Assembly (NCBI RefSeq): GCF_000151665.1
Contig: NW_013171820.1
Coordinates: 62,001-126,000 of the forward strand
DNA length: 64,000 nt
Reading direction: 5' to 3'
Source of the DNA: Blastocystis hominis
Taxonomy: Eukaryota > Sar > Bigyra > Opalinata > Blastocystidae
The position numbers and the translations under genes are program-made. The notes beneath the pieces were generated by a model. The model was given only the letters and a program-made list of their open reading frames with translations. It was not told the origin of the DNA and searched no databases. Positions 43,171 to 61,949 of this stretch are shown in pieces (within the stretch, counting starts at the first letter, position 1; each line of letters begins with the position of its first letter).

Positions 43171-43440
43171 TCCCAATACAATAAAAGAGAGCTCCAGAGC
43201 AAGCAACAAAGGCGATTATATAGAGAAAATTCGATGTGACACCTTTCATAAAATACACTTTCTGTTAGACTTTGCTCTTTCCTCTTTTTTTATTTTGGAT
43301 TTCCATATTGTTTGTTGTTTTCACTTTGTATCTATCTGAATATCTCTATCATTTTTAATTCCTCTCAATTCCAAATGGTACAATCCGCATTCTCTAATAA
43401 CAAACATTAGAAACCAAGCTCAAACGACTAAAAGTACGGT
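43171..43440. other. Divergent intergenic region
   Basis: T-rich spacer between the unknown minus-strand gene and the giant HECT gene. No ORF of note. The structured RNA candidate at 43441-43546 follows. Confidence 0.4.
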
Positions 43441-59949: not shown

Positions 59950-60345
59950 ACAGTGAATGAATTGAATGAATCATAATACAATCCACAATCCATTCTTCAA
60001 ATGATTCTCTCCTTTACAACCATTCAATTCAATCTTTCCATTCAATTCATTCAATTCATTCAATTCATTCAATTTATTCAATTCATTCAATTCATTCAAT
60101 TCATTCAATTCATTCAATTCATTCAATTCATTCAATTCATTCAATTCATTCAATTCATTCAATTCATTCAATTCATTCAATTCATTCAATTCATTCAATT
60201 CATTCAATTCAATTCAATTCAATTCAATTCAATTCAATTCATTCAATTCATTCAATTCATTCATTCATTCATTCATTCATTCATTCATTCATTCAATTCA
60301 TTCATTCATTCATTCATTCAATTCATTCAATTCATTCAATCAGTC
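59950..60345. repeat. TTGAATGAA satellite, copy 2 (intergenic)
   Basis: About 330 nt (60020-60345) of ATTCAATTCATTCAATTC repeat, with blocks reduced to AATTC (60205-60240) and ATTC (60258-60320). It lies between the convergent Pcf11-like and NUF2-like genes. Same family as the 533-nt intron array, in the opposite orientation. ORFs over it (QFIQFIQFI, NELNELNEL) are artefacts. Confidence 0.95.
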
Positions 60346-60384
60346 TATCCACACATATTCCACTCCATTTTCCAATCTCTTTCA

Positions 60385-60392
60385 AACAAACA
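60385..60392 (-). terminator. TGTTTGTT poly(A)-site motif overlapping the open NUF2 frame
   Basis: Exact octamer on the minus strand lying inside the still-open NUF2 reading frame. Cleavage 3 nt before it, after TG, followed by A-tailing would give TGA. Confidence 0.7.
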
Positions 60393-60395
60393 CTC

Positions 60396-61949
60396 CACAC
60401 CATCGCCATCAAACTACTCTGATATCGCTTCGCCTTCTCCACCAGCTCCTTCACCATTACTTCCCTCGCCGCAATCTTCTTCTCCCACTCCGCCTTCACC
60501 GCTTCGATCTTCCCTTCACTCCCTTTTTCCTCCCCTACTTCTCTCTCCACCTCCGCAATCCCGCGTCTCTCCGCTTCGCACGCTTCCTCCGCTTCTTCGC
60601 TCGCCTCCTTCGCTTCCTTCGCTTCGCGACGCAGCCCTTCGATTTGCTCCGCCTTCGCGCGCTCCTCGTTCGCCACGCGCACGCGCAGATCGTCCAACTC
60701 GCTCTGAAACCGCTGCGCCTGCAATTGGAGTTTCTACCGTTCCACAGTTTCCACAGTTTCCACCTTTTTCTCAATGGTTTTATCGGTGAGCTGCTGTTTC
60801 AAGTCGCGGATCTGCTGCTTTAGTGTTTCGATTTGTGTCTCCAACTCATTCCTAAAATCGAGCTGTTTTTTTATTTCCTCCAGTCGCTCCACAACTCCCC
60901 CCAATTTCTATGGAATAACCGCGGGACATCGCTACGGTGGAAGCCTGGCTCATAATCGCGGATTGGGATTGGAGGTCGGTCAGCTGATTGCTCAGCGTTC
61001 GACATTCCGCCGTGAAACGCGCGTATTTTTCGCGGTTATCGACCACTTCTTGCTGCCATTTGATTGGACGCTGTGAGTTCTACTTTGAGTTTCCGCGGGG
61101 AAAGAACGATTTGGCTGCTTAGTGTTTCGTACGTTTCGTTTTCTTCTTTGATTTGTGTTTCGAGTTGTTGCTTGCAGTGAGGAGTTTCATCGATCATTAC
61201 GATGGTGCGCGTGATCTCGCGTGTTTCGATTCGAATAGAGTTTCCTATCTCTTTGAGTCGCTGCTGCTCGAGATTTAAACGCTCGATTTCCTCCTCTAAG
61301 CCTTTGTTCGTTTCTTTCTGATGCACAATGATGTCGCGATCGTACTGCTTTTTCGCTCTACATATCGAAATAAACAAATTTTAAATTACTCCAGAGCGTC
61401 GCGTGTGGTTTGCTTCAGTCGAATGTCAATTTCGGTCCGACGTATCTTTTCGGTCAGTTCATTCTAGTTGAAAAACGAATTATGTAAGTAAATCTACTTT
61501 ACGAGTTCGGTAGGGTTGCAATTCTAGCACGATTTGGTCAGAAAAGCTAATGAAGTTTATAGCGGCGCTAATCAATTGCCGAAATCTTGCTCCCGTTGGT
61601 TGCAATAGATCAGATAGAGAGAAATCGTAGACGCAACAGGTTTCCATGAAACCCTTTCTATTGAGTGAATCATCCGAAATAAACGTTACAAAGGCTCAAA
61701 GGCATTGATAGCAACCAATATCGTAGAGTATCCATCAAGTGAGTACTTTTTTGCTGTATCTCGGTCAAATGATGTGATTTCGTCAGATGGAATGCCGGAG
61801 CAGACGCTCATAAATTGAACCAGTACCTCAGCAATCTTGGCCGGTTTGGGACTGTTGATTTCCTCAATCTCCAACGGAATATTGAGTTGTTTCATCACAT
61901 TCACGATTTCATTGTCCTTTAAAATCGGAAACGAGTACTTATCATCCAT
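60396..61949 (-). CDS. NUF2: Kinetochore protein NUF2-like
   Basis: Starts at ATG 61949: MDDKYSFPILKDNEIVNVMK and LNIPLEIEEINSPKPAKI are the NUF2 calponin-homology start. A 32-nt intron then joins to KGFMETCCVYDFSLSDLLQP, GARFRQLISAAINFISF and EKIRRTEIDIRLKQTTRDAL. Long coiled coils follow (LEEEIERLNLEQQRLKEIG, CRTLSNQLTDLQSQSAIM, EEAEEACEAERRGIAEVERE). NUF2 pairs with NDC80 to attach microtubules. No stop codon occurs before a TGTTTGTT motif at 60385-60392: the frame there reads ATG GTG TG|G AGT. Cleavage after TG plus poly(A) would make TGA at 60396. The next genomic stop, TGA 60332, lies beyond the motif. Confidence 0.88.

What the first reader, a model, noticed from the sequence alone, without database searches (positions are those of the whole stretch)
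60385..60410. NUF2 stop codon probably created by polyadenylation
The NUF2 frame is still open when it meets TGTTTGTT (minus strand, 60385-60392). Three bases before the octamer the frame reads GTG TG|G, so cleavage after TG plus the first A of the tail makes TGA. In Blastocystis a fraction of mRNAs are known to get UAA/UGA this way at the same octamer. The genomic stop further on (60332) would add residues translated from the motif itself.
Basis: partly seen in the sequence, partly recalled or inferred. Interest (0 to 1): 0.75.

Follow-up and report, generated by a model that had tools for sequence, protein, structure and literature searches.

The report
Gene whose poly(A) tail supplies stop
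A cell-division gene (NUF2) of what is most likely the gut protist Blastocystis seems to have no stop codon in its DNA before the message is cut, and most likely gets one (UAA) from the first two A's of its poly(A) tail; this is one more case of a mechanism already described for hundreds of genes in this organism.

Summary
NUF2 (minus strand, 61949 to 60397, seven predicted introns of 28-34 nt) is still in frame when it reaches an exact TGTTTGTT at 60392-60385; the next templated in-frame stop is TGA 60334-60332. In the papers that give the rule, the last templated base lies four nucleotides upstream of the octamer. That base is T60397, first base of TGG, so the mRNA reads ...AUG GUG U|AA: a UAA. 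Both cuts stop at the same codon; the protein ends ...SSLMAMV either way. The frame up to that codon is supported by a homologue from Blastocystis sp. JDR (tail alignment beats 1000 of 1000 shuffles). Genome-wide, T is at the predicted last base of 4298 of 7304 octamers, against 1948 of 5456 reversed controls. The JDR protein's annotated last residues can encode a one-mismatch octamer at the matching place, so its last 11 residues may be a read-through artefact (inferred from protein only). No RNA evidence was available. This is a new member of a known kind.

The parts
60385..60392 (-). TGTTTGTT octamer, presumed downstream element of the poly(A) signal
   Evidence: exact match; the only exact one on this strand between 61949 and 60300, and the next exact one downstream is at 43406
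60393..60396 (-). four-nucleotide spacer GGAG between the predicted last templated base and the octamer
   Evidence: sequence; spacing rule from PMC4159000 and PMC5608401
60395..60397 (-). TGG codon converted to UAA (cut after T60397) or to UGA (cut after G60396)
   Evidence: sequence; the cut itself is inferred
60332..60334 (-). first templated in-frame stop (TGA), 21 codons further on; not expected in the mRNA
   Evidence: ORF 60332-60733
60397..60733 (-). NUF2 exon 8 (last), ends at the predicted poly(A) site
   Evidence: frame supported by homologue P0001
60734..60763 (-). predicted intron 7, 30 nt, GTGGAA...GGTAG, removes the in-frame TAG
   Evidence: homologue aligns without a gap across the junction
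60764..60907 (-). NUF2 exon 7
60908..60935 (-). predicted intron 6, 28 nt
60936..61052 (-). NUF2 exon 6
61053..61083 (-). predicted intron 5, 31 nt
61084..61170 (-). NUF2 exon 5
61171..61200 (-). predicted intron 4, 30 nt, in frame and stop-free; recognised from a 10-residue gap against P0001
61201..61357 (-). NUF2 exon 4
61358..61389 (-). predicted intron 3, 32 nt
61390..61463 (-). NUF2 exon 3
61464..61497 (-). predicted intron 2, 34 nt
61498..61657 (-). NUF2 exon 2 (Pfam Nuf2 continues)
61658..61689 (-). predicted intron 1, 32 nt
61690..61949 (-). NUF2 exon 1 with ATG at 61949

Best explanation
NUF2 of this Blastocystis-like genome has no genomic stop codon before its cleavage site. The octamer UGUUUGUU in the nascent RNA positions cleavage four nucleotides upstream of itself, after U60397. 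Poly(A) addition turns the first base of the TGG codon into UAA, giving a 445-residue NUF2 ending ...SSLMAMV and an mRNA with no 3'-UTR. Shown here from sequence: the open frame, the octamer, its spacing and phase, the genome-wide T at that position, and homology support for the frame. Predicted: the introns. Inferred: that this octamer is used in NUF2 and that the tail begins exactly after 60397. The protein that reads the octamer was not studied here; Klimes et al. suggest a short CSTF2 (CstF-64) homologue.
For: Open frame through an exact octamer with T as codon position 1 at the published cut. Rule: motif (up to two substitutions) exactly four nt downstream of the site in 2333 of 2419 EST-mapped ST7 genes; 372 of 2419 with tail-made stops. 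Genome-wide: T at -5 in 4298 of 7304 octamers (reversed controls 1948 of 5456), against T at -4 in 3039 (controls 1799) and T at -6 in 3329 (controls 1979); TGG at -5 to -3, as here, in 650 of 7304 against 25 of 5456 controls. Homologue P0001: the last 29 residues before the cut plus the W of the cut codon align in this frame with score 59, 0 of 1000 shuffles as good, while the other two frames are at chance (391 and 924 of 1000). Coding character ends there: GC3 0.73 in the last exon against 0.29 in the read-through. In a 264-kb sample, among frames open for 80 or more codons at the cut, spacing 4 gives a tail-made stop in 7 of 14, against 20 of 136 summed over the ten other spacings 0-10 (NUF2 is one of the 7, and one other already has a templated TGA at that codon).
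Against: No transcript data: the tail position and the introns are unproved. The spacing test in the sample is small and weak at other thresholds: at 40 codons spacing 8 ties on count (12 of 44 against 12 of 42), at 60 codons spacing 10 ties on count (8 of 28 against 8 of 25), and at 100 codons spacing 4 has 4 of 10 against 3 of 10 for spacings 0 and 3. A frame through an octamer meets the rule by chance at a noticeable rate (about 15%, from the other spacings at 80 codons). [quoted passage not shown] The JDR homologue is annotated 12 residues past the aligned Val, sharing S and C with the read-through; that similarity is not significant (146 of 2000 shuffles as good). Intron 7 has a GTGG donor, where the other six here begin GTA. 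The organism is identified indirectly.
Confidence: 0.87

Rival explanations
1. One reading: cleavage after G60396, three nucleotides before the octamer, so TG + A gives UGA.
For: The letters fit, TGG allows it, and the roughly 4% of deviating ST7 genes include three-nucleotide spacings.
Against: 2333 of 2419 ST7 genes use exactly four; UGA is 13 of 372 tail-made stops. In the sample, four of the seven spacing-4 cases at 80 codons (window 38874, L006 7736, L011 5383, L016 5854) have C or T after the last base and could not stop with a spacing of three.
Confidence: 0.07
2. The transcript is not cut at this octamer, and translation ends at the templated TGA 60334-60332 with 21 more residues.
For: The JDR annotation also runs on past the aligned Val.
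Against: The octamer is exact and well placed; the read-through drops to GC3 0.29 and has no significant similarity to the JDR tail. The next exact octamer on this strand is at 43406, about 17 kb further on; variants downstream of 60300 were not scanned.
Confidence: 0.04
3. A further short intron in the last exon shifts the frame onto a templated stop (TGA 60411-60409 or TAG 60416-60414) just before the cut, as a predicted intron does in the upstream neighbour gene.
For: 28 of 44 possible GT..AG cuts of 25-45 nt in the last exon would end in a templated stop (14 in a tail stop, 2 in none). The neighbour can end in a templated TAA by such an intron, 31 nt at 62074-62044.
Against: The last residues before the cut align to P0001 in the unshifted frame, and both other frames score at chance. 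The only candidate with GTA..(T/C)AG ends keeps the frame and would remove conserved residues.
Confidence: 0.02

Closest known systems
Polyadenylation-created termination codons of Blastocystis nuclear genes (Klimes et al. 2014, PMC4159000; Gentekaki et al. 2017, PMC5608401)
   Same: Octamer, four-nucleotide spacing, in-frame T at the cut, no earlier templated stop, later templated stop that would be mis-annotated.
   Different: Nothing in kind. This gene has the stop in a TGG codon, so a cut one base late would also give a stop (UGA). NUF2 and 'kinetochore' do not occur in the main text of PMC5608401, and the main text of PMC4159000 as read does not name NUF2; supplements of neither were seen, so NUF2 may be in their gene lists.
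Mammalian mitochondrial mRNAs completed to UAA by polyadenylation, and PAY* Tyr-to-stop conversion (as described in PMC4159000)
   Same: Stop codon completed by the tail.
   Different: Organellar, or alternative isoforms of genes that also have a templated stop; the UGUUUGUU element is reported there for Blastocystis.
Metazoan GU-rich downstream element read by CstF-64 (as described in PMC4159000)
   Same: A GU-rich element downstream of the cut.
   Different: In Blastocystis highly conserved in sequence and spacing, and no conserved upstream motif was found by those authors.

Membership tests
Blastocystis tail-made stop codon genes | TGTTTGTT or close variant just downstream of the site | tested here: met
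   exact at 60392-60385
Blastocystis tail-made stop codon genes | exactly four nt between last templated base and octamer, that base completing a stop with tail A's in frame | tested here: met
   T60397, GGAG, octamer; GTG T+AA
Blastocystis tail-made stop codon genes | no templated in-frame stop upstream of the cut, first one beyond it | tested here: met
   spliced CDS of 1336 nt open to its end, stop formed only with the tail; next TGA 60334-60332. Depends on the predicted introns
Blastocystis tail-made stop codon genes | EST, RNA-seq or 3' RACE reads with the tail at that base | not testable with these tools
   no transcript data available
Blastocystis tail-made stop codon genes | the organism is Blastocystis | tested here: inconclusive
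   Indirect: 18.7 Mb with one octamer per about 2,560 bases, 44.6% GC in 264 kb, against ST7 at 18.8 Mb, 45.2% GC and one per about 2,790; best NUF2 hit is Blastocystis sp. JDR at 45-47% identity
NUF2 (Ndc80 complex subunit) | Nuf2 N-terminal domain, PF03800 | tested here: met
   100.6 bits, cut-off 25, residues 4-130 (455-residue version)
NUF2 (Ndc80 complex subunit) | Nuf2 DHR10-like domain, PF18595 | tested here: inconclusive
   17.4 bits, below cut-off 28.4
NUF2 (Ndc80 complex subunit) | partner Ndc80 present and binding (recalled) | not tested
   not searched

The most novel reading that the evidence does not exclude
The tail-made stop of NUF2 is an old, conserved feature of Blastocystis, present one codon further on in the JDR lineage (predicted ...LMEVVR then UAA from a serine codon TCN), and TGG is favoured at such junctions because a cut one base late still gives a stop (UGA), making termination tolerant of cleavage slippage.
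Probability: 0.2. Interest if true: 0.45.

Novelty: new member of a known kind. Interest (0 to 1): 0.3.

Why it matters
It corrects the predicted 3' end of a chromosome-segregation gene (role recalled from other eukaryotes) and shows how annotation without transcripts can add false C-termini (21 residues here, perhaps 11 in JDR). The enrichment of TGG at the cut (650 of 7304 octamers against 25 of 5456 controls) raises a simple open question: whether tail-made stops are arranged to tolerate imprecise cleavage.

Tried and rejected
Five further NUF2 relatives (P0002-P0006) from a profile search end at the first NUF2 exon, fused to an upstream gene, and say nothing about the C-terminus. A search with residues 1-150 found nothing at E <= 0.001 (440 candidates). 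Both full-length searches scored only the best 7988 and 7998 candidates, so other relatives may have been missed. Scans of viral contigs and genome contigs found no relative (279 and 232 pattern matches, none confirmed). A test whether the fused upstream-gene/NUF2 junction of P0004 fits the tail rule in the NUF2 frame was negative at 0 and 1 mismatch. The longer 39-nt form of intron 2 was rejected because it breaks the frame. The first 455-residue model was replaced by 445 residues after a 30-nt in-frame intron was seen as a gap against P0001; the Pfam and homologue searches were not repeated with the 445-residue form. The idea that the upstream neighbour is a second tail-made stop was dropped: the published spacing gives no stop in its long frame and a 31-nt intron gives it a templated TAA. 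The internal-window control (0 of 410 at one mismatch; 32 of 410 at two) is biased by coiled-coil composition, so adds shuffles (31 of 5000) and windows of long ORFs (93 of 4773). A one-mismatch octamer at 61376 lies in predicted intron 3 with A at -5 and was not taken as a site.

Papers: PMC4159000 main text read in three parts; PMC5608401 passages and the section 'Functional termination codons'; PMC4360255, PMC3129679 and PMC6395660 passages only; all others search listings only.

Full report
What was checked. The minus strand reads ...AGT AGT TTG ATG GCG ATG GTG TGG AGT GTT TGT TTG AAA..., with TGTTTGTT at 60392-60385. The frame is open from 60733 to TGA 60334-60332. The octamer occurs 18 times in the window against 2.54 expected (0 of 100 shuffles reach 18) and 7304 times in the genome (3601 forward, 3703 reverse; the pattern read backwards 5456).

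The gene. Exons 1 and 2 hit Pfam Nuf2 (1.6e-11 and 7.9e-13); the spliced 455-residue model hits at 1.1e-28. A whole-genome search with PF03800 matched only here, as two exons. The first database search returned one homologue, P0001 of Blastocystis sp. JDR, 450 residues, 45% identity over 99% of the query. Alignment showed a 10-residue gap that corresponds to a 30-nt GTAATG..GCAAG stretch, so the final model has seven predicted introns of 28-34 nt and 445 residues. The published modal intron length is 30 nt. Intron 7 (60763-60734) removes an in-frame TAG; in the global alignment the homologue has no gap at any of the seven junctions.

Where the message ends. Klimes et al. mapped poly(A) sites of 2419 ST7 genes with ESTs: 2333 have the motif (up to two substitutions) exactly four nucleotides downstream of the site; 372 have a stop made by the tail, 359 UAA and 13 UGA. 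Gentekaki et al. [quoted passage not shown] Here four nucleotides (GGAG) upstream of the octamer leave T60397 as the last templated base, in codon position 1. The spliced CDS is 1336 nt and its stop is formed with the first two tail A's.

Checks in this genome. In 80 octamers of a 264-kb sample (window plus L001-L020; octamers with fewer than 40 bases before or 20 bases from their start to the end of the stretch were left out) T is highest at -5 with 0.59 among positions -16 to -1. Genome-wide T at -5 is 4298 of 7304, T at -4 is 3039, T at -6 is 3329; reversed controls 1948, 1799 and 1979 of 5456. TG at -5,-4 is 1573 of 7304 (controls 161) and TG at -6,-5 is 470 of 7304 (controls 160); TGG at -5 to -3, the NUF2 context, is 650 of 7304 against 25 of 5456. 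Tandem runs of the motif are included in these counts. In the open-frame test on 70 octamers (runs collapsed, 1 kb upstream required), spacing 4 gives the most tail-made stops at a threshold of 80 codons: 7 of 14, against 20 of 136 over the other ten spacings. The test is weak at other thresholds, with ties on count at 40 and 60 and a lead of one at 100.

Frame support at the very end. The last 29 residues before the cut, with the W of the cut codon, align to the JDR tail with score 59 (0 of 1000 shuffles as good); the other two frames score 14 and 14 (391 and 924 of 1000). Coding composition changes at the cut: GC3 0.73 before, 0.29 after. The read-through tail is not significantly similar to the JDR tail (146 of 2000).

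The JDR homologue. Its annotated end ...LMEVV-RSPLCYKHAIQK can encode T|CNCC|TCTTTGTT, a one-mismatch octamer at the right spacing with T in codon position 1, one codon after the equivalent point. Such compatibility occurs in 31 of 5000 shuffles of the 12-residue tail and 93 of 4773 windows of long ORFs. If real, JDR NUF2 ends ...EVVR and the last 11 annotated residues are false. This is inferred from protein alone; its DNA was not seen.

Judgement. The tail-made stop is the best explanation (0.87), with UAA rather than UGA. It is one more member of a known class. Not shown: any transcript, the organism's name, or the use of this octamer in vivo. A reporter study found that changing the motif and two upstream T's in the legumain 3'-UTR lowered expression 324-fold; [quoted passage not shown] That supports a role of the motif in general, not at NUF2. 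A search for papers holding Blastocystis, NUF2 and kinetochore together found none of 5.39 million; three hold Blastocystis and kinetochore, seen as a listing only.

Noticed in passing
window 63035-61953 (-), octamer 61997-61990: Upstream neighbour, a CCCH zinc-finger ORF (Pfam zf-CCCH_3 35 bits, cut-off 31), runs through an octamer to TGA 61955-61953, 3 nt before the NUF2 ATG. The published spacing gives no stop in that frame; a 31-nt intron at 62074-62044 would give it a templated TAA (...DDPDEMEELMRIMKE) shortly before its poly(A) site.
   Followed up: partly
P0002-P0006 (unnamed proteins, contigs of 2.1-19 kb): All five end in the first NUF2 exon, fused in frame to upstream sequence; for P0004 this upstream part is related to the window's upstream neighbour (E 7e-07; the other four judged by eye). 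So the gene pair seems conserved, with no templated in-frame stop between the genes in the predicted frame. T-L-F-V near the joint could encode TGTTTGTT, but the tail rule is not met in that frame.
   Followed up: partly
window about 60030-60350: Long TTGAATGAA-type simple repeat fills most of the space between the convergent 3' ends at octamers 59877 (+) and 60385 (-).
   Followed up: no
window 38874 (+); L004 7012 (+); L006 7736 (-); L011 5383 (-); L015 4760 (-); L016 5854 (+): Other octamers where a frame open for at least 78 codons would get a tail-made stop at spacing 4 (L016 as UGA); candidate further genes of this class, coding status not examined.
   Followed up: no
G000 genome-wide: G after the last templated T is favoured at octamers: TG at -5,-4 in 1573 of 7304 against 161 of 5456 reversed controls.
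   Followed up: partly
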